NCBI RefSeq assembly: GCF_007830055.1
Contig: NZ_VLLE01000003.1
Location: 310,001-374,000 of the forward strand
Source of the DNA: Lacibacter cauensis
GTDB lineage: Bacteria; Bacteroidota; Bacteroidia; Chitinophagales; Chitinophagaceae
Reading direction: 5' to 3'
DNA: 64,000 nucleotides
The notes beneath the pieces are model-generated. The model saw only the letters and a list, made by a program, of their open reading frames with translations, did no database searches and had not been told where the DNA came from. The first letter of the stretch is position 1. The number at the start of each line of letters is the position of its first letter. The translations under genes and the position numbers were made by a program. Positions 5,658 to 37,400 of the stretch are shown one piece after another.

Positions 5658-5717
5658 CAACCCCGAAGCACAAAAGGAGGATAGGCTTCCACTTACCAAA
5701 TAGCGTGTTTCAGGAAT

Positions 5718-5790: not shown

Positions 5791-5801
5791 CAGTGAAGCA
5801 G

Positions 5802-5834
5802 AAAAGCCTGAACGAAATTTCGTTCAGGCTTTTT
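5802..5834 (+). terminator. Terminator after tRNA-Phe
   Basis: A perfect palindrome: AAAAGCCTGAACGAAA followed directly by its complement TTTCGTTCAGGCTTTT. It begins 11 bp after the tRNA and ends in a T-run; the A-run at the other side would also let it work in reverse. Confidence 0.85.
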
Positions 5835-5859
5835 GTTTATCCGGGCTTTTCGCTTCACT

Positions 5860-6300
5860 GTGTCCTGAAGCGACGGAGGAGGAACGACGACGTCTGCTTC
5901 TGGACACTGCAGCAGTTGTTGGTCTGCAGACCAACAAACAATTCCTTCAATACCTCATCTGTATTTCGTTCGTGTCCATTCGTGTTATTCGTGGTCCATT
6001 CAGTTCATTCCTCATCTGTGTTTTTCTGCGTCCATTTGTGGCTAAATCTTCTTCATCTTTTTTGGTCTTTAGACCAACACAAATTTTCTTCGAGAACTTA
6101 TCTGTATCTCGTTCGTGTCCATTCGTGCTATTCGTGGTCCACAAGTTAAGTCCGGTCGCAACCACCTGCGTCCTCTAAAATTGTAAGCGCAGCGCACGAT
6201 CCATCTGTGTTCTCTGTGTAATCCGTGAGCAATCACATTGCAAGCGCAGCGCCGCATCCATTGCCGCCGTTGTTGGTCGCCGACCAACCAACACACATCT
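5860..6300. repeat. Dispersed intergenic repeats and three related palindromes
   Basis: No gene seen. The stretch holds two copies of a unit reading CGTTCGTGTCCATTCGTG(T/C)TATTCGTGGTCC (near 5968 and 6111), a TCTGTGTTCTCTGTGTAATC unit near 6205, and GCAAGCGCAGCGC words near 6185 and 6240. Three palindromes share a TTGGTC...GACCAA core: 5916-5937 (perfect, 22 bp), 6062-6077 and 6272-6288. The reverse complements of these words recur at 9205-9350 and 16618-17130. Confidence 0.8.
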
Positions 6301-7598: not shown

Positions 7599-7660
7599 CG
7601 CTCTATATACGCAGTATGTATTTTTCGCTCTATTTGCTACCAGCCATCAAAAACGCTCTA
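7599..7660. repeat. Three direct CGCTCTA repeats spaced 27-28 bp, in gap 7425-7824
   Basis: CGCTCTA occurs at 7599, 7626 and 7654, each followed by an A/T-rich pair and a GC (CGCTCTATATACGC, CGCTCTATTTGCT, CGCTCTAATTGCT). The first overlaps a direct repeat TATATACGC at 7593 and 7604. The even spacing, in front of the cassette starting at 7825, fits regulator binding sites, but this is inference. The rest of the 400-bp gap shows nothing I can name. Confidence 0.45.
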
Positions 7661-7824
7661 ATTGCTCAAAAGCGGTAAAAACGCCCGGTTGATTTTCATT
7701 CGCTTTTTTGTGTTTGTACTCTTGTAGTGTCGTTGCAACGGACGGGTTTTACCAAGATGTACCCAAGAGCTTTTTAACAAGCTTTGAAAACATTTCCATT
7801 TTTCCAGTTTTAAATTTTCATCCG

Positions 7825-8580
7825 ATGGCACAACAAAAAGGTATCCTGCCATTAAAAGGAACGATCGGTAACATTAATTTTTACAAAACGAAAGACGGTT
7901 ACCTCGCCCGAGAAAAAACAAGCGTGAACAAAGACCGTATTGCCAATGATCCTGCTTTTGCCCGTACCCGTGAGAACGGTGCGGAATTTGGCCGGGCAGG
8001 GGCAGCAGGTAAGGTGTTGCGTACGGCCCTGCGCTCGTTATTACTGAACACCGCCGACAGTCGTATGCTGAGTCGACTTACCCGTGAGATGATGAAGGTG
8101 ATCCAGGCAGATGCGGTGAATGAACGTGGTTTACGCAATGTGATTGATGGTGAAGCAACACTGCTGGAAGGTTTTGATTTTAATGCCGGCAGTAAACTGA
8201 GTACTTCATTGTTTGCACCGTATACGACCAACATTGATCGTGTAAGTGGTGCACTGAGTATTTCCATTCCCTCTTTTGTTCCGGTGAACATGGTGGCTGC
8301 GCCGAGCGGTGCCACGCATTTTAAAATCGTTACGGCAGGTGTTGAAATTGATTTTGAAAACAAAACGTACGTGGTTGATTTTGGTAACAGTAACTCGTTG
8401 CCGATTAACTCTACTGCTACGGCTGTTTTGAATCTCAGTCACCAGGTAACAGCGAACAGCACGAAGCCTTTGTTTCTTGCAATGGGTATTGAGTTTTACC
8501 AGGAGGTGAATGGTAACCAATACAGTTTGAAGAATGGTGCGTTTAATGCGTTGAGCCTTGTTAAGGTGAGTGGGTCTTAA
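7825..8580 (+). CDS. Conserved Bacteroidota protein of unknown function, first gene of a small cassette
   Basis: 251 residues from the ATG at 7825 (MAQQKGILPLKGTIGN); upstream in-frame sequence to 7708 is not protein-like. The N-terminal 70 residues have a stereotyped pattern I associate with uncharacterised Bacteroidota proteins: a glycine-rich GTIGNINFYKTKDGY strand pair, then KDRIANDPAFARTRENGAEFGRAG and an Arg-rich helix (LRTALRSLLLNTADSRMLSRLTREM). The C-terminal half (about 120-250) is beta-rich. No signal peptide. Followed by a CCCTCTCCT hairpin and two small membrane-protein genes. The order structural-like protein, basic membrane peptide, holin-sized peptide recalls a phage-derived or secretion module, but no phage gene is present. 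Confidence 0.65.
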   Translation: MAQQKGILPLKGTIGNINFYKTKDGYLAREKTSVNKDRIANDPAFARTRENGAEFGRAGAAGKVLRTALRSLLLNTADSRMLSRLTREMMKVIQADAVNERGLRNVIDGEATLLEGFDFNAGSKLSTSLFAPYTTNIDRVSGALSISIPSFVPVNMVAAPSGATHFKIVTAGVEIDFENKTYVVDFGNSNSLPINSTATAVLNLSHQVTANSTKPLFLAMGIEFYQEVNGNQYSLKNGAFNALSLVKVSGS

Positions 8581-8612
8581 CCTCACCCCGACCCTCTCCT
8601 GAAGGAGAGGGC
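8581..8612. repeat. Dispersed hairpin element CCCTCTCCT-ga-AGGAGAGGG
   Basis: Begins directly after the stop codon at 8580. A perfect 9-bp stem (8592-8600 and 8603-8611) with a 2-base gap, preceded by CCTCACCCCGA. This CTCACCCC...CCCTCTCC hairpin is a known type of widely dispersed intergenic repeat. It may act as a transcript-end hairpin; T-runs are weak. Confidence 0.6.
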
Positions 8613-8768
8613 TAGTCAAAAAAGGGTATTCATTCTTCTCTGACGGAGCCATTTTTCTTAATAGAAATCACGCAATCATTTATTGCACTAATAACATTAC
8701 TCCTGAGCGGACGGGAATTGTATTACCCTTTTTATCTCCTGATTTTTTTACAAGACAATTTTCAAAAA

Positions 8769-20228: not shown

Positions 20229-21023
20229 ATGGGATCATCCTCTCTGACGTTTGAATTTCTAACCCATTTTGGTATACAATCCTTTTTTAAGAACGAAAAA
20301 CGTGGCGGGCAAAAGAACGTCTATTTTGTTGTAAGAGCAGATGGCAGCAAGCAAGTAATGAAGATACTTGTTGGGGGTATTGATGCAAGATTTACCCGTG
20401 AAATGAAAATATATGAAAAATACAAGGAGCATCCATGTATACCAGTCGTATATGAAGTACATGAGTATCAAAAGGAAACTGTGATTTTTGAAGAATACAT
20501 CGAAGGACATAGCTTAGATGAAATTGAAAGCACTTACAAGGGCGATAATGATAAGATTAAACAACTTTTACGTGCAATTTTTGATTTGATGACCCCTATA
20601 TGGAAAGATGGAGTTGTACATAGAGATATAAAACCCGCAAATATTATTGTAAGACCTGATGGAACCCCTGTTTTAATTGATTTTGGTGTTGCCCGGGATT
20701 TAAATGAGGAATCAATCACCGCTGCCGGAGGTTTGCAGCCAGGAACTTGGAAATGGGCAGCTCCCGAACAATATGCAGCTAAAAAGGAGATGATCAATTA
20801 CAGGACAGACTTTTTCAGTTTGGGCGTTTTAGCCTACTACCTATATCATCAAGCCCTTCCGTTTGGAAAAACAATTGATGAAATCAACCAAAAGTTCACA
20901 AGTGGTGATGAAACATTTAATCATGATGCGAACTGTACATTTGCTGACTTTTTAATTGAAACCTTACACTTTAAAGTTGCAAACCGCCCCAGAAGTATTG
21001 AAGAACTTGTAAAACTTATTTAA
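20229..21023 (+). CDS. Serine/threonine protein kinase (Hanks-type)
   Basis: 264-residue cytoplasmic kinase, essentially catalytic domain only. Catalytic Lys in VMKIL (Lys45), Glu58 in the C-helix, HRDIKPAN loop (131-138, Asp133), DFG (151-153) and APE (178-180) are all present, so it should be active. The Gly-rich loop is weak (KNEKRGGQKNVYF). There is no transmembrane helix or sensor domain, unlike PknB-type kinases; small soluble kinases of this sort are frequent in defence or toxin systems. The stop codon abuts the next ATG (21024), so the two are co-expressed. A PP2C phosphatase lies 1.8 kb away on the other strand. Confidence 0.9.
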   Translation: MGSSSLTFEFLTHFGIQSFFKNEKRGGQKNVYFVVRADGSKQVMKILVGGIDARFTREMKIYEKYKEHPCIPVVYEVHEYQKETVIFEEYIEGHSLDEIESTYKGDNDKIKQLLRAIFDLMTPIWKDGVVHRDIKPANIIVRPDGTPVLIDFGVARDLNEESITAAGGLQPGTWKWAAPEQYAAKKEMINYRTDFFSLGVLAYYLYHQALPFGKTIDEINQKFTSGDETFNHDANCTFADFLIETLHFKVANRPRSIEELVKLI

Positions 21024-22205
21024 ATGAAAGTACTGCACCTGACCGGCCATTTTCAGAAATGGAATCTGGATTCTTATTTTCAAAATTCAATTGGTGATGG
21101 ATTTGTATTCTGCGCTTATAGCTTTGAAGAAGGTTTTTTTGCAAAGGACAAGGTAAACGGCTATGTAACCGATGAAATTTTGGCACATTCATTTTTTGAT
21201 CTGCAATATTATGGAAAGAAGGAAGGCGGTAATATTCAAAAGGGAAAGCTTGGAACCTATCCTTTTCACCCTACAGCAAACGCTGAAAGTGAAGAGCAGA
21301 CAAACGTTTTAATCGAAAGCCTGATTAAGCAGGGGATAACTTATCAAATTGACAACCTTGGGTTAAAGAATGTTATCATTCCAAATTATTATGAAAATGA
21401 GCGACCCAATGATTTCATTGCAATAATTAAAAGTATCAATAAATGGCTGACAGCTAATAAGGTTGATGGAATAAAATATTTTATGACCTTACCAATAGCT
21501 AACCATACAATCATCGATGAGGCAAAGATTGATGAACTTTTATTTCATTTAACTGATCTTCCAATTGTTTTTGATGGGTATTATATTGTTTGTGAAGCTA
21601 AGCCCGATGCAAGGCAAAAAATAAGCACCGATTTCAAATACCTGCGTAATCTTGCAACCATTTTCAAGACTTTAAAAAAGCAAAAGTTTGAAACTATTTA
21701 TGCTTATGCCAATTGGGATGCCTTGGTATTTCTGTCATTAACTGATATTGACTATATCACAATCGGTACTTATGAGAACTTACGGAATTTTACTATTAAA
21801 CGATTTACAACACAGGAAGACGGCGGTCCTTCAAAAGGCTGGTATTTCTCTGAAGCATTACTCAATTTTGTAAAGGCGCAGTTCCTGGATCTGATTCGTA
21901 ATCAGAAAGGGATTGATATTATAAAAAATGAGCGTAATGTTTTTTCAGATGCAATACTTGTTGAAGGGTATCCATGGAGTAATCAAAAGCCTGAGGTGCA
22001 TAAGAATTATCTTTTAACGATAACAAGGTTGTTAAAAGAACTCGCTTCTGAAAAAGACCTGGAAAAACGGAAAAAATTGTTGATTGCCAAGATTGATCAG
22101 GCTGTAAAAAATTATGAGCAACTTGAACGGTTACATATCACTTTAACAGATGAAAGTAAAAACTACCACCTCGGCATGTGGAAATCATTTTTACTTACAC
22201 AGTAA
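21024..22205 (+). CDS. Unknown protein, second gene of kinase operon, possible TIM-barrel
   Basis: 393 residues, no signal peptide or membrane helix. Family not recognised. Alternating hydrophobic strands and helices (GIKYFMTLPI, LPIVFDGYYIVCEA, FETIYAYANWDALVFLSL, IDYITIGTYENLRNF) suggest an alpha/beta barrel; ends in a charged helical region (KELASEKDLEKRKKLLIAK). N-terminus MKVLHLTGHFQKWNLDSYF. It starts at the base after the kinase stop, so it is likely the kinase's partner or substrate. Its 3' end overlaps the convergent gene below by 15 bp. Confidence 0.75.
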   Translation: MKVLHLTGHFQKWNLDSYFQNSIGDGFVFCAYSFEEGFFAKDKVNGYVTDEILAHSFFDLQYYGKKEGGNIQKGKLGTYPFHPTANAESEEQTNVLIESLIKQGITYQIDNLGLKNVIIPNYYENERPNDFIAIIKSINKWLTANKVDGIKYFMTLPIANHTIIDEAKIDELLFHLTDLPIVFDGYYIVCEAKPDARQKISTDFKYLRNLATIFKTLKKQKFETIYAYANWDALVFLSLTDIDYITIGTYENLRNFTIKRFTTQEDGGPSKGWYFSEALLNFVKAQFLDLIRNQKGIDIIKNERNVFSDAILVEGYPWSNQKPEVHKNYLLTITRLLKELASEKDLEKRKKLLIAKIDQAVKNYEQLERLHITLTDESKNYHLGMWKSFLLTQ

Positions 22206-22850
22206 ATTTTTCTTAAGACTTTCATTCAATAAAATCCACATTTTCATGTCGACAGGGTTGCTCTTTTGCGGGTTAAAATGAAGGATGAGCTTTCCATCTT
22301 TATTTATTTCTGCAAGGCCTACGTTCAATTGTTTAAACTCCTGAATGTTTTTAAGTGCAGGGTTTATATAGTGACTGTCGAGAACGACAATTGATTTTTC
22401 TGCGAACCATTTATACCGAAAGGCCTGATTTAAGGCTCTTTTCCAATTTTTCAGTTTTGCTTCAATTGCAATCGTATTTGTAGAAATACCCTTATACGAT
22501 TTACGGAATTTAATTAATGAATCAGTTTTGTTGATATAGCTGTCTTTGATCAATTTATTCAGTGATCTATTCAGCGCAACCGTATCGGCTTTCGTTATTT
22601 CTTTTAACTGATTTAAAGTTACAGTTCTGTTAGTTTCGATAATTCTGTAGATAACGGTATCGAAATAAGTCAGTTTTTCCGTTGTTTGTGCTGCCTGTTT
22701 CTGCAATTTTGCAATTACCAAATCAGCCACTCCAAAACCCAAATCAACTTCCTCCAGTACGCTGGTATTGGAAGTTTTTGTTTTCCAATCACAAATTGAT
22801 GCGTAATTGGCTTTCAGTGAGTTAACAAGCTCTTTTTCGGATGTGAACAT
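22191..22850 (-). CDS. PD-(D/E)XK-like protein with inserted winged helix
   Basis: 219 residues. The N-terminal part has EEVDLGFGVADLVI (about 33-46, Asp43 as the candidate nuclease Asp), then a winged-helix-like section (about 62-115; IIETNRTVTLNQLKEITKADTVALNRSLNKLI), and then TIAIEAKLKNWKRALNQAFRYK (Glu130-Ala-Lys132) followed by SIVVLDSHYI, a typical E-x-K plus helix pattern. This split layout, nuclease core interrupted by a DNA-reading domain, is inference from motif spacing. It lies 5 bp behind the PP2C gene and is co-transcribed with it; its 3' end overlaps the convergent 21024 gene. Confidence 0.6.
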   Translation of the reverse strand: MFTSEKELVNSLKANYASICDWKTKTSNTSVLEEVDLGFGVADLVIAKLQKQAAQTTEKLTYFDTVIYRIIETNRTVTLNQLKEITKADTVALNRSLNKLIKDSYINKTDSLIKFRKSYKGISTNTIAIEAKLKNWKRALNQAFRYKWFAEKSIVVLDSHYINPALKNIQEFKQLNVGLAEINKDGKLILHFNPQKSNPVDMKMWILLNESLKKNLLCK

Positions 22851-22855
22851 GGCAG

Positions 22856-23509
22856 TTATTTCACAAAAATAAACGTGGAATCATCAATGTTCTTGCCTTT
22901 TATCAAAGAATTTATTTTTTCGCTTATCGTTTTCAGCGATTTTTTCTGGAATACCTCAAAAAAAGCAAGCTTATCTTTTTCCAATACACGTGAAAAGCCA
23001 TCCGTACAAAGTAACAGATGCAGGTTATTTTTCAGTTTTTCTTCCTGTCTAAAATCGCTTATATGCAACTGGGGGTCTCCCAAATATTTCGTGAGTACAT
23101 TTTCTGAATAGTTATCATCTAATGTTATTTGCTCCATAAACTGATTACTAATGATATACAATCTTGAATCGCCCAACCAGGAGTACGTAAAGCTGCTGTT
23201 TGTTTTATTCTGGTATACTAAACAAAAAGTTGTAAACGGCTCTTTGGTGCCTGTTTTTAACAGGTGGGAATTTGTATCATACATGAGCTGTTTCAGTTTT
23301 ATTTCATTGCCGAGGTATTTTTTATGATTTGCTTTTATAAAGTCGGCTGCATTTTTAGAAGCTTCACCGCCACCGATGGCTGAACTTACTCCATCAAAGA
23401 CTGCAAATACGTTGTAATCCGGCTCTTCTATCAGGAGCAAGTTATCTTTATTTATTTCTCGTTTTTCACCCTTAATGGAGGCAAAAACATGTCTGGTCTT
23501 TGTCGTCAT
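22856..23509 (-). CDS. PP2C-family serine/threonine protein phosphatase
   Basis: 217 residues from the ATG at 23509; a TTG at 23524 would extend it by five residues but would fall within the candidate promoter. Metal-binding motifs of PP2C are intact: INKDN (Asp22), AVFDGVSS (Asp39, Gly40), the WLGDSRLYI block, LLLCTDGFSRVL and DDSTFIFV near the C-terminus. It would reverse phosphorylation by the nearby kinase. Encoded divergently from the PIN-like gene and in operon with the PD-(D/E)XK-like gene. Confidence 0.88.
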   Translation of the reverse strand: MTTKTRHVFASIKGEKREINKDNLLLIEEPDYNVFAVFDGVSSAIGGGEASKNAADFIKANHKKYLGNEIKLKQLMYDTNSHLLKTGTKEPFTTFCLVYQNKTNSSFTYSWLGDSRLYIISNQFMEQITLDDNYSENVLTKYLGDPQLHISDFRQEEKLKNNLHLLLCTDGFSRVLEKDKLAFFEVFQKKSLKTISEKINSLIKGKNIDDSTFIFVK

Positions 23510-23521
23510 ATTTACGTACTG

Positions 23522-23529
23522 CAAAATTA
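23522..23529 (-). promoter_or_regulatory. -7 element for PP2C gene
   Basis: Minus strand reads TAATTTTG (TAnnTTTG), only 13 bp before the ATG at 23509, implying a very short leader; no TTG at -33. It supports that ATG over the TTG at 23524. Confidence 0.35.
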
Positions 23530-23591
23530 ATACCCAATATAGAACTTCTGTTACTGTATTTTACCAGGAGTTTTATTGTTTTGTAACTGCT

Positions 23592-24566
23592 ATGGGTAAA
23601 TATATTCCTGACAAACATCTTATTTATCTTGATCAGTTTGCATTGAGCAGGCTGGTAACATCTGAGCCTGGAACAATTTGGGAGCGGTTACGACAATTGT
23701 TGGAGCAAGGCGTTGAGCAGGAGAAAATCATTGTGCCTTATTCGCTTGACCATTCGATGGATTCCTCTACTTCTAATATGGAGCTTGCTGAAAAGGAAGA
23801 TTCTTTTCTTTTTAATTTAAGCAGCGGTTTTATGTTTGATGTTGAAGCGAAGATTGCGGCAAAGTATATCATGCACCTTGTCAGGTGTAAAAGGATTGGG
23901 GTTACGATTTTTAAAAAAGTAGCATCCCATAAAGCTTTCGGAACAAAAGAAGCCCAAGAGCAATTTGCTGAACGAAGGGCAACTTATGAGCGAATGATTA
24001 ATGAAGGCACTTCCCAGCTTAATGCTTTTCGTACTATAACCAGAGATGGTAAGAAGCCAGATAAGAACTTGGTAGAAACCTCTTTGCAGATGCTTATTGC
24101 AAACTATGAACAGAACTTGGTCTTACGCCTTAGACAATATAGCCGTTATGGATTCTACGAGAAGCGGAAAATAGAATTCAGTTTTAAGACCATACACTTT
24201 TGGGCAGATGTGCTTATGGAACTAATGATAGGTGAGTACCAGCTTACAAAGGCCGAGGCTAAAAAGGCTGTTTTGTTATTTGAAAGGGAGGGATTAAAAA
24301 AAGTTATGCCTACTCAATATATACGTGCTGCTATTGAAGCAATGATGATGGTTAAACAACAAGCTGAAAAAGTAAATGATCATGTTGATATTATACGACT
24401 TTGCACAGCTTTGCCATTTTGCGACATTGTTTTAACTGACAAGATGCGGCTTTATGATGTACAAACAATGAAGCTTGATAAGGAGTTTAATACAGCAGTG
24501 TATAGTGGTACTAAAGAACAGTTGGCTCTATTTGAAGAGAAACTAACAACTATTGTAGAAAATTAG
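23592..24566 (+). CDS. PIN-like domain protein, predicted RNase
   Basis: 324 residues from the ATG at 23592 (earlier frame from 23475 overlaps the PP2C gene). PIN-like acidic residues: Asp14 in HLIYLDQFALSRL, an acidic cluster at NMELAEKED (about 63-70), and VDIIRLCTALPFCDIVLTDKMRL (Asp266, Asp278, Asp283), which has the PIN spacing 'D....A.....D...T.D'. About 180 residues of helix sit in between, so it is a large PIN protein rather than a VapC toxin. No antitoxin-like gene is attached. It begins 82 bp from the divergent PP2C gene and may belong to the same locus. Confidence 0.65.
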   Translation: MGKYIPDKHLIYLDQFALSRLVTSEPGTIWERLRQLLEQGVEQEKIIVPYSLDHSMDSSTSNMELAEKEDSFLFNLSSGFMFDVEAKIAAKYIMHLVRCKRIGVTIFKKVASHKAFGTKEAQEQFAERRATYERMINEGTSQLNAFRTITRDGKKPDKNLVETSLQMLIANYEQNLVLRLRQYSRYGFYEKRKIEFSFKTIHFWADVLMELMIGEYQLTKAEAKKAVLLFEREGLKKVMPTQYIRAAIEAMMMVKQQAEKVNDHVDIIRLCTALPFCDIVLTDKMRLYDVQTMKLDKEFNTAVYSGTKEQLALFEEKLTTIVEN

Positions 24567-27332: not shown

Positions 27333-30014
27333 ATGAACCACAACGAACCCGAAAAAGTAACCCGCAAAAAGCGCATTGATACTAACCTGAAAAATTTGGG
27401 TTGGAATATTGTGCCCTACGAAGCCGGGTTAAATACGAGTACGCTTACAAAACACGCAGTAGAAGAATACCCTACCAGTAACGGACCTGCTGATTATGCC
27501 TTGTTTGTAAACGGGCAGCTGCTCGGTATTGTTGAAGCCAAAAAATACGGAATCGGTGCACAGAATGTTTTAGAGCAGGCCAAGCGCTATGCCCGTGGTG
27601 TAGTGCACTCAATCGGGCGGTGGGGTGAGTACATGGTGCCCTTTCTTTTTTCTTCGAGTGGTGAACAGGTTTATTTTCTTGATGTACGACAGCCCCAAAA
27701 CCTTAGCAGGTCTTTACAGGATTTTTATTCGCCACATGCTCTTTCGGAGTTTTTTCAACGAAATGAAACAGCTGCCAATGAATGGTTTCAACAAACTCCG
27801 ATTGATAACCCCCGCCTGCGTCCTTATCAAATAAAAGCTATTGCTGCGGTAGAAAAAGAAATAATTGCCGGAAAGCGGAAAATGCTGCTGGCTATGGCAA
27901 CCGGTACAGGTAAAACCTTTACTACTGTAAACCAGATTTACCGGCTACTGAAATCAAAAAAGGCAAAGCGTATTCTGTTTCTTGTTGACCGTAAGGCATT
28001 GGCTGCACAGGCAGCAACTGCTTTTGCATCATTTGAAACGGCCTCCGGTCTTAAACTGAACCAGGAGTATGAACTGTACAGTCAACGGTTTAAAAAAGAA
28101 GATCTTGATGAGAACGAGAAGTTTGATGTGAATGTATTGCCCAATGAATACCTGACCAAACCTGATGCCAGCAAAACATTTGTGTATGTTGCCACGATTC
28201 AGCGGATGGCGATTAACCTGTTAGGCAAAGATGCTGTGATGGGAAATGATGATAACGATAACGATGATGAGAGCGATGCTGCAAAACTGGATATACCTGT
28301 ACATGCTTTTGATGTGATTATAGCAGATGAATGTCATCGTGGTTATACTTCGAAAGAAAGCAATGTGTGGCGGGCTGTGCTGGAGTATTTTGATGCGGTA
28401 AAAATTGGTTTAACCGCTACGCCGGCTATGCATACGGTAAGTTATTTTGGTGAGCCTGTTTACAGATACACTGTGAAAGAAGCTGAGCTGGATGGATACC
28501 TCGTTGGTTATGATGCCGTGAAAATTAAATCGGGGGTACTCATCAATGGGGTGTTTTTAAAAGAGGGCGAGCAAGTAGGTAAAGTAGATACGCTAAGCGG
28601 ACAGCTTACCATTGAAGGACTGGAAGATGAACGGCAATTTGATGCGAGCCAGGTAGAACGCAAGATAACGGTACCCGATACCAATAAAAAAATTGTGGAG
28701 GAGCTAGCGAAGTATTGTTTTGCATTTGAGGAAGAGTATGGCCGTTTTCCCAAGACATTAATTTTTGCGAGTAACGATATCAATAATATTTCGCATGCCG
28801 ATAACCTGGTTACGTTTTGCAAACAAACCTTTAACCGGGGTGATGATTTCGTGATGAAGATCACTGGTAATGCAAATGTTGACCGGCCACTTGAAAAGAT
28901 CCGGAAATTCCGCAACCGGCCTGAACCAAAGGTGGTGATTTCGGTGGATATGCTGAGTACGGGTGTGGATATACCGCAACTGGAGTTTATTGTTTTTTTA
29001 CGGCCTGTTAAGTCGAGAATTTTGTGGGAACAGATGCTTGGGCGTGGGACAAGACTTTGTCCGGATATCAATAAAGAAAAGTTTACGGTCTTTGATTGTT
29101 TTGATGGCACACTCATCAAGTACTTTAAAAATGTGAGCAATTTTGCTTTTGATGAACCCGGCAGCGATCCCCTACCAATTGAGGAAGTGATACGACGGAT
29201 TGATAATAATGAAGACCGTGATCATCATGTAACTGTATTCATTAAGCGGCTGCGACGAATTGAAAAACGCATCAGCAGTGAAGGAAGAAGAGAATTTGAA
29301 CCGTGGATCAAGGATGGTGATATTGGCAAATTTGCCGGTGGTTTCCGGAAGCTGCTCGACAATCAATTCGGTGATACGATGCGTATATTGAACGACAAAC
29401 AATTTCAGAAGCTGCTGTACAATTATAAAAAGTCGAAACCTTATTTTGTAGTGGCGCATAATGTGCAGGATGAAGTAAGTTCGGAAGTGGTGTTTGAAGC
29501 AGGTGAGCAATACCTGAAGCCGGTGGAATACCTGGAAGCCTTTGCAGCGTTTGTGGAAGAGAACAAAGAGCGTATTGAGGCTATGAAGATTGTACTGGAG
29601 AAACCAAAAGAATGGCGAACGGAAGTATTAAAGGAATTACGAACAGAGTTGCTTCGGCATCATTTCCCCGAGGCGAGTCTGAAGCATGCTGCTCAATTGG
29701 TACACAAGAAGCATTTGCCGGATATTATTTCGCTGATAAAAACAGCCGCCAATAAGGAAGAGCTTTTAGAAGTGCATGAACGTGTGGGCAAGGCTATTGA
29801 AAAACTGTTTGCCGTCAAGCAACTGAATGCAGAACAGGATGCATGGATAGCGTATATTAAAGAGCATTTGATCCAGAACCTTACATTGGATAAAGAGGAT
29901 TTTGATTATTCGCCAATTCTTGAAAGGCATGGTGGCTGGGGTAAGTTTAAGAAGGTGTTTAGTGCTGAAGCGGAAACGATTATACGTGAAATAAATACTG
30001 CCATTGCTGCATAA
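27333..30014 (+). CDS. hsdR: Type I restriction enzyme, R subunit (EcoEI-like)
   Basis: 893 residues. N-terminal PD-(D/E)XK nuclease (Asp54 in ADYALFVNGQLLGIVEAKK, Glu68-Ala-Lys70), then SF2 translocase: Q-tip RLRPYQIKAI (161-170), Walker A ATGTGKT (189-195), Walker B DECH (332-335), TATP motif, and the ...MLGRGTRLCPD motif VI region. The C-terminal ~250 residues are helical. It cuts unmodified DNA when bound to M and S. Stop codon is 2 bp before the next ATG (30017). The order R-x-x-M-S is less common than R-M-S. Confidence 0.95.
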   Translation: MNHNEPEKVTRKKRIDTNLKNLGWNIVPYEAGLNTSTLTKHAVEEYPTSNGPADYALFVNGQLLGIVEAKKYGIGAQNVLEQAKRYARGVVHSIGRWGEYMVPFLFSSSGEQVYFLDVRQPQNLSRSLQDFYSPHALSEFFQRNETAANEWFQQTPIDNPRLRPYQIKAIAAVEKEIIAGKRKMLLAMATGTGKTFTTVNQIYRLLKSKKAKRILFLVDRKALAAQAATAFASFETASGLKLNQEYELYSQRFKKEDLDENEKFDVNVLPNEYLTKPDASKTFVYVATIQRMAINLLGKDAVMGNDDNDNDDESDAAKLDIPVHAFDVIIADECHRGYTSKESNVWRAVLEYFDAVKIGLTATPAMHTVSYFGEPVYRYTVKEAELDGYLVGYDAVKIKSGVLINGVFLKEGEQVGKVDTLSGQLTIEGLEDERQFDASQVERKITVPDTNKKIVEELAKYCFAFEEEYGRFPKTLIFASNDINNISHADNLVTFCKQTFNRGDDFVMKITGNANVDRPLEKIRKFRNRPEPKVVISVDMLSTGVDIPQLEFIVFLRPVKSRILWEQMLGRGTRLCPDINKEKFTVFDCFDGTLIKYFKNVSNFAFDEPGSDPLPIEEVIRRIDNNEDRDHHVTVFIKRLRRIEKRISSEGRREFEPWIKDGDIGKFAGGFRKLLDNQFGDTMRILNDKQFQKLLYNYKKSKPYFVVAHNVQDEVSSEVVFEAGEQYLKPVEYLEAFAAFVEENKERIEAMKIVLEKPKEWRTEVLKELRTELLRHHFPEASLKHAAQLVHKKHLPDIISLIKTAANKEELLEVHERVGKAIEKLFAVKQLNAEQDAWIAYIKEHLIQNLTLDKEDFDYSPILERHGGWGKFKKVFSAEAETIIREINTAIAA

Positions 30015-30016
30015 TC

Positions 30017-30403
30017 ATGACTTACTTACCTCAACATATCTGGGCTGATATTGCAGCCACTCAAGAATTAAAAACGGATTGGGCTAAGCGAATGTTTACG
30101 ATTTCTGAAGGGTTGATTGATGAAGAAATTGACAGACAGGCAGCTTTTTTCAGCAGCCTGGGTTTTACAAATAAAATAGTGTTGGCTTTTTTGCAGTTTA
30201 TGCCCCTACTATTGGAGCAAAAAGCAATATCAAGTTATATTAACAATAAGGAATTGCCTGAGCTAAGAAGTGTTTTGCCTGAAATACAAGATGCGGGCGA
30301 GGCTGTTCTTTATGTAAAGAACGAACATATTCTTAGCGACTATGAAACTAAGGCCTTATACTGTTTATTTAAAGCAATCGAAAACAGCCAAATGATTAGT
30401 TAA
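30017..30403 (+). CDS. Hypothetical protein in hsd operon
   Basis: 128-residue helical, acidic protein starting 2 bp after hsdR. No motifs recognised. SSLGFTNKIVLAFLQFMPLLLEQKAISSYI is a hydrophobic helix pair but not an obvious membrane span. Placed between hsdR and hsdM with 2-bp spacing on both sides, so it is a translationally linked member of the operon rather than a chance ORF. Confidence 0.6.
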   Translation: MTYLPQHIWADIAATQELKTDWAKRMFTISEGLIDEEIDRQAAFFSSLGFTNKIVLAFLQFMPLLLEQKAISSYINNKELPELRSVLPEIQDAGEAVLYVKNEHILSDYETKALYCLFKAIENSQMIS

Positions 30404-30405
30404 GC

Positions 30406-31338
30406 ATGCTTGGAGAACTTCTTAAAATATTAGCTGATGAGCCAGAAAAAATATCCAAAATATTTATCCGGTTATTTAAAATTATTCTAAGCATCCTGTT
30501 GACCGATTTTCTTTACAGGTACTTATTTCACAGTACTCCATTTTTTGATATCCGGCTTTCGAATAACTGGATCAGCTTCTTTGAACAGGGTAAATTATTT
30601 GTTTATCTTTTCCTGTATTTTGTATGCGAGATTTTTTTATTTCATGTATTCAGCCCGATCAGTTCATTTATTCCTGAGTTGCTAAGTAAAATCAAATTTG
30701 CAAAAGTTGAAAAGCAGGAGTTAAACCTGATACTTAAGATTACCGGCGTTATTAAATACGATGAAACAATAAAAAAAATAATGCCAGGAAAAAACTTCAG
30801 TTTATTTCATAGTATCGTCGATATTTTTTCAAATCAAGAAAGTAAAGAACAAATAATCGACTTGAAAGGCAGTTTTATTGAAAACATCTGGCAATTATAC
30901 ACTGCCTCATTATTTATCTTCTTTTTAACAGGCGCCTATATTTACTGGCCCAATGAAATATATGTGTATTTTTTTATCGGACTGGGACTTCTGATTCTAT
31001 TCTACTATATTATTCATAATGCCATTGAATACTTTATAAAAAATGAGCCGCAATTAAGTTTTAGTGCAGCAAAACTAAGGGCACAAAAAATAGTATATGA
31101 TGCACTTGCCAAACATTTTATTATTCCTCTAGCCGCTGAACCTGACAACGATTTAAAGCGGGGAGTTACTTTTTATATTCATGGCAGAGAGTATGTATTG
31201 AATTTTATTTATTCAACTAATGAACCGCATGTTAATGGATTCAGGAAATACGTTAACACAAACGAAAATGACAAAAGATACTTCCTGTTTGTTACCAATC
31301 TTTATCCTGCGGGTGAATTAACAGCATTGGATTGCTGA
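30406..31338 (+). CDS. Four-helix membrane protein inserted in hsd operon
   Basis: 310 residues. Predicted transmembrane helices at about 22-40, 63-84, 165-181 and 185-205. The rest is cytosolic: a middle section of about 80 residues and a C-terminal 105-residue domain (AKLRAQKIVYDALAKHFIIPLA ... VTFYIHGREYVLNFIYSTN ... RYFLFVTNLYP). Family not recognised. A membrane protein is unusual within a type I restriction operon and may be an abortive-infection or anchoring component. Confidence 0.65.
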   Translation: MLGELLKILADEPEKISKIFIRLFKIILSILLTDFLYRYLFHSTPFFDIRLSNNWISFFEQGKLFVYLFLYFVCEIFLFHVFSPISSFIPELLSKIKFAKVEKQELNLILKITGVIKYDETIKKIMPGKNFSLFHSIVDIFSNQESKEQIIDLKGSFIENIWQLYTASLFIFFLTGAYIYWPNEIYVYFFIGLGLLILFYYIIHNAIEYFIKNEPQLSFSAAKLRAQKIVYDALAKHFIIPLAAEPDNDLKRGVTFYIHGREYVLNFIYSTNEPHVNGFRKYVNTNENDKRYFLFVTNLYPAGELTALDC

Positions 31339-31340
31339 AT

Positions 31341-31436
31341 ATGGATATTATTGCATTTGATAGCGAGGATGATTTATCTGTTAAAGTTGAACAGTTTTTA
31401 AAGGCACATACAAGAAGTAAAACAAGAATACAATAA
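31341..31436 (+). CDS. 31-codon small ORF before hsdM
   Basis: ATG at 31341, TAA at 31434-31436. Translates to MDIIAFDSEDDLSVKVEQFL followed by a basic tail (KAHTRSKTRIQ). It starts 2 bp after the previous stop and ends 7 bp before hsdM, with AAGGA in that gap. Spacing favours a real peptide or a coupling leader; composition also allows a truncated gene. Low confidence. Confidence 0.35.
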   Translation: MDIIAFDSEDDLSVKVEQFLKAHTRSKTRIQ

Positions 31437-31443
31437 GGATATT

Positions 31444-32856
31444 ATGGCAGATATTGTAAATAAACTCTGGGGGTTTTGTCACACATTAAGGCATGATGGT
31501 GTGGACTATGGCGATTATATTGAACAGCTAACCTATTTGCTGTTTTTGAAAATGGCCGATGAAAAAGAAATTGATGTTGATAAGAAATACAACTGGAACA
31601 GTTTAAAAGATTTGAGTGGTACAGAGCTGACCGACCATTATGCAGAAACCTTACGCAAACTCCGTGAAGGCAAGGGTATACTCGGGAAAATTTTTACACA
31701 GGCCATGCCACGTATTACCAACCCTGTAAACCTGAAGCGCCTCATTAATATGATTGATGAGGAGGACTGGAGCAGTATGGACGTGGATGTAAAAGGAGAA
31801 GCGTTTGAAGGTTTGCTGGAAAAGAGTGCCAATGAAGGGAAGAAAGGAGCCGGACAATATTTTACACCAAGGGAACTGATCCGCAGCATTATCAGGGTGA
31901 TGAAGCCCGACCCGAGAGCAAAAAAAGATTTTACCATTTGCGACCCCAGCTGTGGTACCGGTGGTTTTCTTGTGCTGGCTTACGACTGGCTGATGGATGT
32001 AACGAAGGGCGGTGCCTTAGACCGTGAAGATGCGAAGCGTATAAAAAGCAAAACCTATTTTGGTAATGAGCTGGTGCCACGGCCTGCCCGTTTGGCGATG
32101 ATGAATCTGTTTCTGCATGGCGTAACCACCGAAATAAAAATTGGTGATACCATCTATGAACCGTTTGACGGAAAACAATACGATTGTATTCTTACCAATC
32201 CACCATTTGGTACCAAGGGTGCCAACCAGGCACCGGAACGGGAAGACTTTACCATTGCCACCAGTAACAAGCAGTTGAATTTTGTGCAGCATTATTTAAG
32301 TGCCTTGAAACCCGGAGGCAGGGCTGCCATTGTGTTGCCCGATAATGTGTTGTTTGAAGACAAGGCTGCCGAAGTGTTTAAGATATTGATGCAGGATTGT
32401 AACCTGCATACCATTTTACGTTTGCCCCGAGGTACGTTTACGCCCTATGCACAAGGTGTAAAGGCGAATGTGGTGTTTATCCAGAGAGGGTTGCCTACTG
32501 AAAATGTGTGGATTTATGATGCCCGGAGTAATGTGGAAGGGATTACCAAAAAGGACCGGCCACTCACTGCCAAACATTTTGAAGAGTTTGAACAATGCTA
32601 TGGTAAAGACCCAAACGGGCAAAGCAAACGGAAAGACCTTGGGCCTGAAGGCCGCTTCCGCAAATTTCATATTAGTGAAATAAAAGAACGGGATTACAAG
32701 CTGGATATTACATGGCTGAAAGATGAAACGCTGGAAGACAGTGATAGCCTGCCCGAACCACAGGTGTTGGCAACTGAAGCCATTACTGAGCTTGAATTTG
32801 TAGTAGATGAATTGAAAGAAATTTTGAATTTACTGGAAACAGAAAGTGAAGAATAA
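31444..32856 (+). CDS. hsdM: Type I restriction-modification, M subunit (N6-adenine methyltransferase)
   Basis: 470 residues. N-terminal HsdM-type helical domain (about 1-125; LWGFCHTLRHDGVDYGDYIEQLTYLLFLKMADE), then the methyltransferase core: GQYFTPRELI (138-146), motif I DPSCGTGGF (167-175) and motif IV NPPF (252-255). It methylates the recognition site and, with S, targets R. The gene begins 7 bp after the preceding 31-codon ORF and ends 75 bp before hsdS. Confidence 0.96.
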   Translation: MADIVNKLWGFCHTLRHDGVDYGDYIEQLTYLLFLKMADEKEIDVDKKYNWNSLKDLSGTELTDHYAETLRKLREGKGILGKIFTQAMPRITNPVNLKRLINMIDEEDWSSMDVDVKGEAFEGLLEKSANEGKKGAGQYFTPRELIRSIIRVMKPDPRAKKDFTICDPSCGTGGFLVLAYDWLMDVTKGGALDREDAKRIKSKTYFGNELVPRPARLAMMNLFLHGVTTEIKIGDTIYEPFDGKQYDCILTNPPFGTKGANQAPEREDFTIATSNKQLNFVQHYLSALKPGGRAAIVLPDNVLFEDKAAEVFKILMQDCNLHTILRLPRGTFTPYAQGVKANVVFIQRGLPTENVWIYDARSNVEGITKKDRPLTAKHFEEFEQCYGKDPNGQSKRKDLGPEGRFRKFHISEIKERDYKLDITWLKDETLEDSDSLPEPQVLATEAITELEFVVDELKEILNLLETESEE

Positions 32857-32931
32857 TTATGTACTTAACTGCAGGACTACTATGATGCTTCAGTTGCGTT
32901 GCACTCTTGTACTGCAGTAATTTTATTGAGC

Positions 32932-34407
32932 ATGGATAGTAACTTACCTAAAGGTTGGATTGAAATTTCATTTACTGAATTGTTAGATGTGCAAGGAGGA
33001 ACTCAACCTCCTAAAAGCACTTTTATATATGTTCCAAAGAAAGATTACATAAGATTGCTACAAATTAGAGATTTTGGAGAAAAACCTCATCCAACATTTA
33101 TTCCCTTCAGAACACAATTAAAAACTTGCACGAAAGAAGACATACTTATTGCAAGATATGGAGCATCATTAGGGAGAATTGTAACAGGAATGGAAGGAGC
33201 TTACAATGTTGCTCTTGCTAAAGTTGTCATTCCCGAAGAAATTAATAAGAAATTTGTATATCATTTATTGAGGTCTGAAATATTTCAAAGACCTATACTG
33301 GCTAATGAAAGAAGTGCACAAGATGGTTTCAATAAAGATGACCTAGAGAGAATACAAATTCCTCTTCCACCACTTCCCGAACAGCAACGCATAGTTGAAA
33401 AGCTGGATGCATTGATGACCAGAATTAATAACAGCAAAGAAAGGCTGGAAAAAATACCAACACTGCTTAAAAATTTCCGTCAGTCTGTATTGGCTGATGC
33501 AGTAAATGGAGAGTTGACAAAGGAATGGAGGGAGGAGAATGATAATATAACCGAAGCAAAAACAAAAACTAATAAAAAAGAACGGAAGAATATACTTGAT
33601 GACAAGGTTGACGATTACGAGTTATTTGAATTGCCTGCTAAATGGAATTGGAAAACAATTTCAGATATATCAGACGTAAAAGGCGGTAAAAGAATTCCAA
33701 AAGGGCATCAGTTAGTTTCTTATGATACTGGCCTCCCATACATTAAAGCAGGAGATTTAAAGAAAGGAACAGTTATAAAAGATAAACTTGAATTTCTTTT
33801 ACCTGAAACACAAAAAATAATTAAGCGATATATAGTTTCAAAAGGGGATGTGTATATAACAAATGTAGGTGCGAAAATTGGTGACGCAGGTGTTATTCCA
33901 GATGATATGGATGGCGCAAATCTTACAGAGAATGCTTTAAAAATGTGTAACCTTGATGGAGTAATAAATCTTTATTTATCTATTTGGTTGCAGTCTCCAA
34001 TTGCACAAAGATTTATACAGAAAACAATTTTATCAGCAGCTCAAGGTAAGTTAGCACTGGGTAGAGTTGAAGTATTTCCGATTCCATTGCCACCAATCCA
34101 AGAGCAAAATGAAATCGTCCGAAAAGTAGAAGAATTATTTCATTTTGCTGACAGCATTGAAGCACGTTACCAAAAAGCCAAAGCGTGGTTTGATAAATTA
34201 CCACAGGCAATACTTGCGAAAGCATTTCGTGGAGAACTTGTGCCGCAGGATGAAAGTGATGAACCGGCAAGTGAATTATTGAAACGTATACAACAAGAAA
34301 AACATACTATTTCTAAACAGCCCAAAACTATTGCCCTCAAAGCCAAACGTAGGAAGAGTTATAAGATTGATGAGGATGAGGAGTTGAGGATGGTGGCGGA
34401 GGGGTAA
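32932..34407 (+). CDS. hsdS: Type I restriction-modification, S (specificity) subunit
   Basis: 491 residues from the ATG at 32932; the open frame begins at 32899. Two target-recognition domains, each followed by a conserved helix: first TRD about 8-155, with LPPLPEQQRIVEKLDALMTRI closing it; second TRD about 210-390, with IPLPPIQEQNEIVRKVEELFHFAD. The two halves define a bipartite DNA target. The C-terminus is basic. Ends 11 bp before the reverse-transcriptase gene, so the RT is likely on the hsd transcript. Confidence 0.93.
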   Translation: MDSNLPKGWIEISFTELLDVQGGTQPPKSTFIYVPKKDYIRLLQIRDFGEKPHPTFIPFRTQLKTCTKEDILIARYGASLGRIVTGMEGAYNVALAKVVIPEEINKKFVYHLLRSEIFQRPILANERSAQDGFNKDDLERIQIPLPPLPEQQRIVEKLDALMTRINNSKERLEKIPTLLKNFRQSVLADAVNGELTKEWREENDNITEAKTKTNKKERKNILDDKVDDYELFELPAKWNWKTISDISDVKGGKRIPKGHQLVSYDTGLPYIKAGDLKKGTVIKDKLEFLLPETQKIIKRYIVSKGDVYITNVGAKIGDAGVIPDDMDGANLTENALKMCNLDGVINLYLSIWLQSPIAQRFIQKTILSAAQGKLALGRVEVFPIPLPPIQEQNEIVRKVEELFHFADSIEARYQKAKAWFDKLPQAILAKAFRGELVPQDESDEPASELLKRIQQEKHTISKQPKTIALKAKRRKSYKIDEDEELRMVAEG

Positions 34408-34418
34408 AAAAGAACTAT

Positions 34419-37400
34419 ATGAATAACATCATGGATTTAACATTAGATGATTTACGTTTAGCATTCAGAAAAGCTAAAATTGATGCGTATTACGAAAATG
34501 GCGATAATAGCGTCAGGAAGTTTATTGATTATGAACTTCAGTTGGATAAAAACCTGAATAGTCTTTTACTGAATATTTTATTAGATCAAGCTGACAATGA
34601 TATTGAAAAAAGTGTAGGTTCTTTCACTTACATGATTAAATCAATAAAGCGAGACAAGGAGTCACTAACAAATTTTTATTATTCAAATGCTGATGAAGAT
34701 TGGAATAACCTTGAAAATGAGCAGATCGAAATTCAGTATAGAGTTATTGGACAACTTGAAGTAGAAATGCATGTAATTGCTTCACTATGGATAATGAAAA
34801 CAGGGCATAAACTGGAAAGACATTTAAGCGAGAATAGTTATGGTTGCAGGCTTAGGAGAACAAATCAAAAGGAGTGTTTTTTTAAACCAGGCTCAACGGA
34901 ATACAGCGAATTTGATAAGGGCAACTTCAGACCCTATTTTGTAGATTACAAAAGCTGGCAGAACAAAGGGATAGATACTCTGAAGCATGAAATTCGTAAC
35001 GGCAAAGATGTAATAGCCATTACACTGGACATTGAGAGGTTTTATCACAGGGTTAATCCTGATTTTATTAATTCTAAAGAGTTCCTTGATTTGATTGGGG
35101 AAGCTGATTTGTACAACGATCCTTACACAATCTTACTCCTTAAGAGGCTTGAAATATGGACAAAGAAAGTTATTGATGAAGGAATTTTTGATTTTGATAT
35201 GTTGAGAATTCGGCATTGTGGAATTCCTATTGGTTATAGTGCATCGAAGATAATTGCCAATCTTTTATTATTTGAATTTGACAAATTAATTGAAAAGCAT
35301 ATTGACCCGCCTTATTACGGACGATATGTTGATGATATTTTTTTAATTATTAACAATACAGGCGAAATCACCAATAGCGAAGATTTTTGGAATTTTATTC
35401 AAAAAAGAATTGGAACAGATAAAATAGAGAAAGTTATTGATGAGGATAACTATAAATTAAGTATATACTATAGTAAACAGAGCGAGGTTATTTTTTCTCC
35501 AAAAAAGCAAAGATTTTTTGTATTAGCCGGAAAAAGCGGCGAAGCATTTATTGAAAGCGTACAGGACTCTATTAATGAAAACAGTAGTGAATGGAGAATG
35601 TTACCTGATACAGATAAGGATCTGGAGGCGTTAACAAAAGAGATGGCTTCTCCAACAACCGATAGTTCGGAACACGTCAATTCAATCAGAAAGTCAGATG
35701 GATTAAGTATTCAACGCCTAAAATTCGCTTTGCATTTAAGAAACTTTGAAGCAATTGTTCACTCGCTAAATGCACATTACTGGAAAGACGGATTAACGAA
35801 ATTTCTTGATCTTTCACTTGATTTTGTAGTTACACCCTTGAATATTGATGTTTACCAAAAGTATTATGCAAGACTGGTAAGACTAGCTATTTTATCCTCA
35901 CGGATAGACTATGCAATCAAAATTATCAACAAAATAAATAATTCATTTGACCTGTTACAATCAAGAAGTGACAATGACGTCCAATTTGAATTATGCAGAA
36001 AGCATATTAATGAGACTTTAACGGAAGCAATTATAACGGGACTAAACCCAGATTTGTTGGCTGGTAAAAAATATGAGCAATATGAACCATTGTTTAAAAT
36101 GCTTAACCAGAGCAGTAATGAAATTGTAAAGTATCACAGATATGCGATCTACTCAGATTGGCATGTAGTTCCGTATAAACGTTTTTTAATTGATGATATT
36201 GAGTTTAGAAAAAGTGGATTGAAGCATGATAAATTTGTTTTAGATAGTGCGGTGCTAAGTAATAATAGCAAACTGTCTCATCAATTCAATTCATTACTTG
36301 AATTTTGGTATACTTACATTAAACGAACTAATGCTGGATTTCCCAGTGCTCTTTTTTATTACACCAGACCTTTTGATACACTTGAACTAACACTTCTATT
36401 TAGTGACTGGTTAACTAATGAATCGAAATTCGATCTACTGTTATTGCTTAATAGAATATTTGGCAACCCAGAAATTGAAGGCTACATAAAGAAACCCAGA
36501 CAGCATAAAGAACTTGCAAACTATTTGTATGTTGATATTAAAGCAGAGTATAAGACTATTGACAGATATTTTTGTTTGAGTAATTTTTATACGAGTGAGG
36601 ATAGCTGGATTGCAGATGTGAGAGATGATCATCAGGAGCCCGATACCGGTCGATTGCAAAGGCTTTATAGATTAATTAATAATGTGCTAAGGGTGAAGGA
36701 AAAGGAAATCGATTATATCGTATTTCCTGAATTGAGTTTGCCCAGAAGTGAAATTAGTTATGTTGCAAAAAAATTAAAAAACAAGGGTATCTCATTAATT
36801 GCGGGGGTTGGTTATCAAAAAAAAGAATTAAGAAATGAATTACAACCATTAAAAGGATCTGTATCAAATCAACTGATCTATATTTTAAATATTGGAAGTA
36901 GTGATAAAGAGCAACAAATCTCAATAATACAGGAAAAGGTATTTCCTGCCATACATGAAGAAAGTAATCTTATGCAAGTAGGAGGGAAAATTCTAATCCC
37001 TCATTCAGATAAGAAATACATTATTAATCATGACGGGTTATACTTATCGGGTCTAATTTGTAATGATGTTTTAAATATTAATAACCGATACCCGCTTAGA
37101 GGCGAAATAGATTGCCTTGTTTTAGTTGAATGGAATCCCGATACGGAAACATATGATGGCTTAATAAAAGCTACAGCAAATGATTTGCATTGTTTTGTTA
37201 TTCAAGTAAATGATCGATTGTATGGTGATACCAGAATACGAGCACCCTATAAGGAACACTATATGAGAGATGTGGTTAGAATAAAGGGAGGTGAAATTGA
37301 TTATTTTGTTGTGTCTAAGATTGAGGTGGAAAGTTTACGTGAATTTCAAAGAGATTTTCGATCCTCTCCAAAAGGAAAGTTTAAGCCTGTGCCTACTGGA

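What the first reader, a model, noticed from the sequence alone, without database searches (positions are those of the whole stretch)
20229..24566. Kinase / unknown barrel / PD-(D/E)XK-like / PP2C / PIN-like locus: candidate undescribed defence system
Seen: a soluble Ser/Thr kinase with intact catalytic residues; an unknown 393-residue protein starting at the base after its stop; convergent to them a PP2C phosphatase and a winged-helix protein with D...ExK residues, 5 bp apart and overlapping the 393-residue gene by 15 bp; and a divergent PIN-like nuclease. Known: matched kinase-phosphatase pairs can form stress or phage-response switches. Inferred: phosphorylation of the 393-residue protein, or of the nuclease, could be the trigger, with the phosphatase holding it off. 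I cannot name a described system with this set.
Basis: partly seen in the sequence, partly recalled or inferred. Interest (0 to 1): 0.75.

Follow-up and report, generated by a model that had tools for sequence, protein, structure and literature searches.

The report
Kinase, barrel and nuclease gene cassette
A small travelling set of genes, a protein kinase, a barrel-like protein of unknown kind and a DNA-cutting-type nuclease (here with a phosphatase as well), is kept together in distantly related bacteria and an archaeon, sometimes inside known virus-defence genes, and looks like an undescribed, phosphorylation-controlled defence system.

Summary
A soluble Ser/Thr kinase, a ~390-aa barrel-like protein and a PD-(D/E)XK-type nuclease lie together in 17 loci: the window, nine genomes of its phylum, two named Bacteroidota, and plasmids of Bacillota, Actinomycetota (2), Pseudomonadota and a haloarchaeon. 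Kinase and barrel are fused in 3 of 17. Ten have the nuclease on the opposite strand, 9 of them with overlapping 3' ends. Nuclease residues E5, E34, D43, E130, K132 and Q142 are identical in 17 of 17. PP2C is an accessory (4 of 17); the PIN-like gene is in none of the 16 other loci. In three loci the module lies inside or against restriction-modification genes. The barrel matched no family in the libraries scanned; tRNA-guanine transglycosylase (TGT) is its best, unproven, lead. The nuclease is remotely related to NCBIfam sce7726, whose genes can pair with barrel-type genes without a kinase. Best reading: a mobile defence module in which kinase and barrel control the nuclease, PP2C being an added brake. 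Function is untested, both structure models are poor, and eight literature searches with capped lists found no description.

The parts
20229..21023 (+). soluble Hanks-type Ser/Thr kinase, 264 aa, catalytic residues intact (K45, E58, H131-R132-D133, N138, D151-F-G153)
21024..22205 (+). 393-aa barrel-like protein of an unnamed family; (beta/alpha)8-like order of secondary structure in a low-confidence model; D59 and P120 invariant in 17 of 17; lacks the CxCxxC motif seen in 3 other members
22191..22850 (-). 219-aa PD-(D/E)XK-type nuclease with a winged-helix insert between D43 and E130; E5, E34, D43, E130-x-K132, Q142 invariant in 17 of 17; fold not confirmed
22856..23524 (-). PP2C-type phosphatase, 222 aa (or from ATG 23509); accessory found in 4 of 17 loci
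22191..22205 (.). 15-bp overlap of the convergent 3' ends of barrel and nuclease genes; 9 of 10 opposite-strand loci overlap, by 6 to 77 bp

Best explanation
A mobile defence module in which a protein kinase and a barrel partner act as one sensing and control unit for a PD-(D/E)XK nuclease. Shown by sequence: the three genes stay together through rearrangement, kinase and barrel can be one polypeptide, kinase and nuclease keep their catalytic-type residues, and the nuclease usually carries an insert of winged-helix size that could hold DNA. Inferred: the barrel binds the nuclease or the signal (compare the kinase-less barrel-type + sce7726 pairs), a phage- or restriction-derived signal activates the kinase, phosphorylation of barrel or nuclease (or release from it) lets the nuclease cut phage or cell DNA, and in the window's clade a PP2C, probably co-transcribed with the nuclease, keeps it off or resets it.
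For: Co-occurrence in 17 loci: opposite-strand nuclease in 10, nuclease-kinase-barrel in 5, kinase-barrel-nuclease in 2, kinase-barrel fusion in 3 (its profiles were built from these loci, but searches found the partners with smaller, earlier profiles). Kinase and barrel trees correlate (r 0.70, 0 of 5000 permutations reach it; 0.46, 2 of 5000 with the close clade thinned). Nuclease residues invariant in 17 of 17, kinase residues in 16 of 16. The module lies between hsdM and hsdS/hsdR in G773, directly after hsdM in G540, and between a DNA methylase gene and a ResIII gene in G467; a PD-Lambda-3_A-like gene follows it in G773. In the window it lies about 4 to 11 kb before type I restriction genes and an RT UG5-nitrilase gene. 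Five loci are on plasmids, two lie beside a recombinase gene (L005 by my reading; Kocuria as annotated), and hits are rare: 3 of 395, 4 of 245, 3 of 244, 2 of 278 genomes (different queries, overlapping draws, the first and last including the window's own genome).
Against: No functional data. No Ser/Thr is invariant in barrel or nuclease, so no conserved phosphosite is visible. The nuclease tree is only loosely coupled once the close clade is thinned (barrel-nuclease r 0.25, 223 of 5000; kinase-nuclease 0.19, 669 of 5000). Neither fold was confirmed. Restriction genes are common in islands and no background rate was measured. In L004, L005, L006, L007, L019 and L075 I recognised no defence gene by eye in the stretch held. 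Nuclease or barrel homologues also occur without the module (L008, L017, L034).
Confidence: 0.58

Rival explanations
1. The barrel is an active TGT-like base-exchange enzyme, and the module is a kinase-gated modification and restriction system that alters or inspects bases in DNA or tRNA and cuts with the nuclease.
For: Eight TGT proteins rank 1, 3, 6, 7, 9, 10, 32 and 81 of 232 templates in profile comparison with the barrel family, five of the six shown in one register (rank test p 2.9e-7, but the TGTs are relatives of one another). TGT profile E 0.0015 against 0.87 for its reverse. CxCxxC near the C-terminus in 3 of 17 members, about 188 to 202 residues after the aligned Gln, against about 175 in TGT by my reading. 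Foldseek lists TGT at ranks 23, 27 and 31.
Against: 0 of 12 members match Pfam TGT. hhalign probability is only 17 percent and the global alignment fails; with three TGT sequences, the first try, E was 0.041 against 0.16 reversed. The TGT set is 8 of 20 loci, picked by a motif filter that included CxCxxC. Few other TIM barrels were among the templates (one, folP, ranks 15th), so the ranking may show barrel-likeness rather than TGT ancestry. The Zn motif is missing from 14 of 17 including the window's protein.
Confidence: 0.12
2. A KKP-like toxin-antitoxin switch: the kinase is the toxin, acting on host proteins; the phosphatase is the antitoxin and the nuclease a secondary effector.
For: KKP (PMC11341870, abstract and passages seen) shows that kinase plus PP2C modules can be phage-activated toxin-antitoxin systems; the window has one kinase and one PP2C.
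Against: PP2C was found in 4 of 17 loci while the nuclease is in 17 (the PP2C profile came from four close sequences, so a divergent phosphatase could be missed). There is one kinase, without FHA or cold-shock domain.
Confidence: 0.12
3. A stress or gene-regulation cassette without defence role: the winged-helix protein is a transcription regulator with a degenerate nuclease core, controlled by phosphorylation.
For: The winged-helix region resembles MarR-type regulators; a plasmid member is annotated BadM/Rrf2 regulator; six loci show no defence gene that I recognised.
Against: Six nuclease residues are identical in 17 of 17 while the insert is absent from 4 of 17; plasmid and restriction-operon settings.
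Confidence: 0.14
4. Chance juxtaposition of unrelated genes in a defence island.
For: The window region holds other defence genes.
Against: 11 of 12 independent barrel loci have both partners.
Confidence: 0.01

Closest known systems
sce7725 / sce7726 families (NCBIfam NF033831, NF033832) and beta-family-like + sce7726 pairs
   Same: A PD-(D/E)XK-like protein next to a barrel-type protein; in two of six sce7726 loci fetched (L067, L068) the pair is convergent with overlapping ends, as here. Profile comparison of the nuclease with sce7726 E 0.00038 against 0.33 reversed, probability 36 percent; the G139 nuclease hits NF033832 at E 9.2e-4.
   Different: No kinase hit in those six loci. Our nucleases score far under the family cut-off (16.8 and 20.1 against 70 bits). 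The barrels show no sequence relation (hhalign E 0.16 or worse). Five papers hold these names, none in title or abstract (listing only). That sce7725 and beta-family proteins are barrels, and that L067 and L068 hold beta-family proteins, is recalled or my reading, not tested.
KKP kinase-kinase-phosphatase module (PMC11341870)
   Same: Ser/Thr kinase with PP2C partner in mobile DNA, phage defence.
   Different: Two kinases with CSD and FHA domains, and no nuclease or barrel in the module; here one kinase, and PP2C in 4 of 17.
MADS (kinase Mad6) and BREX type 2 (PglW) / DndF
   Same: Kinase tied to methylation-based defence; PglW and a subset of DndF proteins join a NERD-REase with kinases (PMC12839542, passages seen). 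Our module sits with restriction-modification genes in three loci.
   Different: Only the kinase domain matches: MAD6 82.1 of 460 bits, PglW 38.5 of 990. In the rows shown, the barrel part of three fused proteins gave no match of its own. MADS gene content is recalled; no paper about it was among the seven found.
PD-T4-6 kinase (PADLOC)
   Same: Kinase domain, E 7.5e-31.
   Different: Single-gene system (recalled); its models also match the kinase part of all three fused proteins scanned, so the match is not specific.
tRNA-guanine transglycosylase / DpdA
   Same: Best profile lead for the barrel; CxCxxC in 3 of 17.
   Different: No significant match; see rivals. DpdA as a DNA-modifying TGT relative is recalled; PMC6884629 was seen in a search listing only.

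Membership tests
PD-(D/E)XK nuclease superfamily | catalytic D ... E-x-K with helix Glu and following Gln (motif recalled) | tested here: met
   E5, E34, D43, E130, K132, Q142 identical in 17 of 17
PD-(D/E)XK nuclease superfamily | the alpha/beta core fold | tested here: inconclusive
   AlphaFold2 pLDDT 47.9, pTM 0.31, three sequences
sce7726 family (NF033832) | score over curated cut-off 70 bits | tested here: not met
   window protein not listed at E up to 1; L007 16.8 bits; G139 20.1 bits
sce7725 family (NF033831) | score over curated cut-off 60 bits | tested here: not met
   window, L014, L033 and L034 barrels have no NCBIfam hit; hhalign E 0.55
KKP | two kinases, one with CSD and one with FHA domain | tested here: not met
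   one kinase, no CSD or FHA among its Pfam matches
KKP | PP2C phosphatase (PF13672) | tested here: met
   E 3.3e-8, but in 4 of 17 loci only
MADS | MAD6 over curated cut-off 460 bits | tested here: not met
   82.1 bits, kinase domain only
BREX type 2 | PglW over curated cut-off 990 bits | tested here: not met
   38.5 bits
TGT (PF01702) | Pfam match | tested here: not met
   0 of 12 members at E up to 1
TGT (PF01702) | CxCxxC...H zinc site | tested here: inconclusive
   CxCxxC in 3 of 17, not in the window protein
TIM barrel fold | eight alternating strands and helices closing a barrel | tested here: inconclusive
   alternating order, but pLDDT 45.9, pTM 0.47; best Foldseek hits mostly TIM barrels, E 0.018 or worse
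anti-phage defence system | protects cells against phage | not testable with these tools
   context only

The most novel reading that the evidence does not exclude
A phospho-switched base-exchange and restriction system: a kinase licenses a TGT-like barrel that modifies or reads DNA or tRNA, and the dedicated PD-(D/E)XK nuclease destroys nucleic acid that fails the check. It would be a mechanism shared between bacteria and archaea, with no described counterpart known to me.
Probability: 0.12. Interest if true: 0.88.

Novelty: new variant of a known kind. Interest (0 to 1): 0.7.

Why it matters
It gives a compact unit, in five of 17 loci plasmid-borne, in which eukaryote-like phosphorylation appears coupled to a nuclease in both bacteria and archaea, and a barrel family outside the protein libraries scanned. 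Its link to kinase-less sce7726 pairs offers a way to ask how kinase control was added to a barrel-nuclease pair, and the natural variants (PP2C present or absent, insert present or absent, kinase-barrel fusions) make the mechanism directly testable.

Tried and rejected
PIN-like gene as a fifth part: rejected, no relative in the 16 other loci. Four genes as the obligate unit: rejected, PP2C in 4 of 17. Library scans of barrel and nuclease gave no confident family; set aside as weak: Orthopox_F6 (E 0.039) for the barrel; DNA_pol3_delta (E 0.00064), phrog_22231 of unknown function (E 0.00015, residues 146-201) and a helicase family (E 0.0013) for the nuclease; PDC-M64A (E 0.011) for the Priestia nuclease. 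PDB sequence search: barrel one hit at E 0.71, nuclease mostly winged-helix regulators over the insert. Relation of the barrel to sce7725 or the beta-family-like proteins: not supported. Nuclease profile in 395 genomes of the window's class: 11 matches; own and G773 are strong; the other 9 (E 1.4e-5 to 7.2e-4) have no kinase or barrel in the roughly 3 kb held of each and were dropped from the module count. Most match over the insert; two (L030, L031) match parts of the nuclease core and were not followed. Homologues without the module: nuclease in a phage contig (L008), Halorubrum (L017) and at a contig end where neighbours on one side cannot be seen (L079); barrel in Gordonia (L034). PF14350 in 99 genomes: 0, and the control rang nowhere, so uninformative. 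Window barrel against phage and plasmid records: 0 of 50,697 and 0 of 72,556; L007 barrel against plasmids 0; L018 nuclease against plasmids 0 and L008 nuclease against phages 0; barrel scans of viral contigs 0 confirmed. Literature: eight searches of the held library answered; lists were capped (25 of 32, 20 of 147 and 6 of 8 papers shown); none of the rows shown describes the set; preprints and most subscription papers are not held.
Full report
What is in the window. Kinase and PP2C have clear Pfam matches. The 393-aa and PIN-like proteins have no confident match in Pfam, NCBIfam, PADLOC or PHROGs, and the 219-aa protein only weak ones. The module is at about 34 to 37 percent G+C; the DNA to its left (12 to 20 kb) is at 44 to 46 percent, while to the right low and higher G+C alternate up to about 46 kb. 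Genes for a type I restriction enzyme and methylase and an RT UG5-nitrilase lie about 4 to 11 kb to the right.

The grouping is conserved. By my reading of the ORFs the cassette in L006 sits between housekeeping genes. None of the 16 other loci has a relative of the PIN-like protein in the stretch held. A more distant locus (L007, G255) has kinase, barrel and nuclease but neither PP2C nor the winged-helix insert.

It is widespread. The window nuclease matched six plasmid records: Priestia, Natribaculum (an archaeon), Kocuria, Kineococcus and, at E 0.05, Polaromonas have a kinase and a barrel beside it; Halorubrum has neither. Searches with the barrel found G440, G467 and G540, G143 and G974 and G1060; the nuclease profile found G773; all seven have the three genes, the kinase of G974 being incomplete at a contig end. 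In all, 17 loci carry the core. From the barrel side, 11 of 12 independent loci other than the window have both partners: G139, G255, G440, G467, G540, G143, G974, G1060, Chryseolinea, Pontibacter and Polaromonas do, Gordonia (two records of one plasmid) does not. Rates are low: 3 of 395, 4 of 245, 3 of 244 and 2 of 278 genomes (different queries, overlapping draws, and the first and last tallies include the window's own genome).

Layouts. Ten of 17 have barrel and nuclease on opposite strands, with overlapping 3' ends in 9 (6 to 77 bp) and a 6-bp gap in Kocuria; five are nuclease-kinase-barrel and two kinase-barrel-nuclease. Kinase and barrel are one protein in Priestia, Kocuria and G773. Persistence through rearrangement, with fusion, is strong evidence that the genes work together. 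Tree distances agree best between kinase and barrel (r 0.70, 0 of 5000 permutations; 0.46 with L004-L006 left out, 2 of 5000). The nuclease is more loosely coupled: barrel-nuclease r 0.54 (1 of 5000) falls to 0.25 (223 of 5000), and kinase-nuclease 0.42 (0 of 5000) to 0.19 (669 of 5000).

The nuclease. Across 17 sequences E5, E34, D43, E130, K132, Q142 and G178 are identical, the pattern expected of an active PD-(D/E)XK enzyme (recalled). In 13 of 17 an insert of 84 to 97 residues lies between D43 and E130; in the family profile and in single members it resembles MarR-type winged helices. In L007, L018, L019 and L033 the spacing is 13 to 29 residues. So the nuclease core, not the insert, is the constant part.

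The barrel. D59 and P120 are invariant in 17 of 17, Q108 in 14. The model is poor (pLDDT 45.9, pTM 0.47) but alternates strands and helices in (beta/alpha)8-like order, and the best Foldseek hits, all with E of 0.018 or more, are mostly TIM barrels as I recognise them, with TGT at ranks 23, 27 and 31. In profile comparison with 232 templates, eight TGT sequences rank 1, 3, 6, 7, 9, 10, 32 and 81, five of the six shown sharing one register. The best TGT profile comparison has probability 17 percent and E 0.0015 against 0.87 reversed; global alignment fails; earlier tries with fewer TGTs gave E 0.041 and 0.0017. The eight TGTs are those of 20 loci that passed a motif filter, and few other TIM barrels were among the templates. 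Priestia, Kineococcus and G773 members carry CxCxxC near the C-terminus, as TGT does; 14 of 17 do not. I treat TGT as a lead, not an identification.

Relation to named families. The nuclease is remotely related to sce7726. In the six sce7726 loci that I fetched, sce7725 follows it in two (L064, L065), and a protein that I read as beta-family lies convergent and overlapping in two more (L067, L068); none gave a kinase hit. Five papers hold these family names (listing only). This suggests that a barrel-type plus nuclease pair exists without a kinase and that the present system is a kinase-equipped counterpart; but the barrels themselves show no detectable relation.

Defence setting. In G773 the fusion and nuclease lie between hsdM and hsdS-hsdR, followed by a PD-Lambda-3_A-like gene. 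In G540 they follow hsdM, with hsdS further upstream. In G467 they lie between a DNA methylase gene and a ResIII gene. In Natribaculum an Eco57I-type methylase gene lies two ORFs before the module, and a metallophosphoesterase gene comes directly after the barrel, perhaps in place of PP2C. Five loci are on plasmids. Against this, in L004, L005, L006, L007, L019 and L075 I recognised no defence gene by eye in the stretch held. No background rate was measured, so the setting supports a defence role without proving it.

Mechanism. The commitment is to a kinase-barrel unit that controls the nuclease. What is shown: association, fusion, intact residues. What is inferred: signal, phosphorylation target, DNA cutting, PP2C as brake. 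The lack of any invariant Ser/Thr in barrel and nuclease warns that the phosphosite, if there, is not fixed, or that the kinase acts on itself or elsewhere. PP2C shares a strand with the nuclease while the kinase shares one with the barrel, which fits opposing actions, but in 13 of 17 loci no PP2C relative was found.

Comparison. KKP (abstract and passages of PMC11341870) shows that kinase and PP2C modules can be phage-triggered, but it has two kinases and no nuclease in the module. PglW and some DndF proteins join kinases with NERD nucleases (passages of PMC12839542) but are other proteins. DefensePredictor (passages of PMC13092281) holds neither 'sce7726' nor 'TIM barrel' in its main text. 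No described system's membership test was fully met, so the module is reported as a new variant of kinase-linked defence. Its absence from print rests on the searches listed under Tried and rejected, in an open-licence library without preprints and with capped lists.

Noticed in passing
L008 5728-6297 (IMG/VR contig) and L079 4941-5255: Nuclease homologues on viral contigs without kinase or barrel in the stretch held; in L008 it lies near a major head protein gene (7629-8630, E 7.5e-32). It could be a phage counter-defence decoy or a phage nuclease; L079 ends at the contig end.
   Followed up: partly
   Followed up: partly
L034 (Gordonia bronchialis plasmid) 4998-6245: A lone divergent barrel near a phosphotransferase, a DNA methyltransferase and a HEPN-associated gene; possibly a form with another type of kinase.
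   Followed up: partly
L014 8710-9399 (Natribaculum plasmid): Metallophosphoesterase (Metallophos_2, E 3.7e-27) directly after the barrel gene.
   Followed up: partly
window 23475-24566: PIN-like protein with no match in four libraries, divergent from the PP2C gene; not part of the cassette.
   Followed up: partly
window 27333-37445: Type I restriction genes with a 1008-aa RT UG5-nitrilase gene (PADLOC E 1.7e-241) downstream.
   Followed up: no
L032 8209-8700: 163-aa PD-Lambda-3_A-like gene (E 4.2e-14) between the module and hsdS in a type I operon.
   Followed up: no
   Followed up: no
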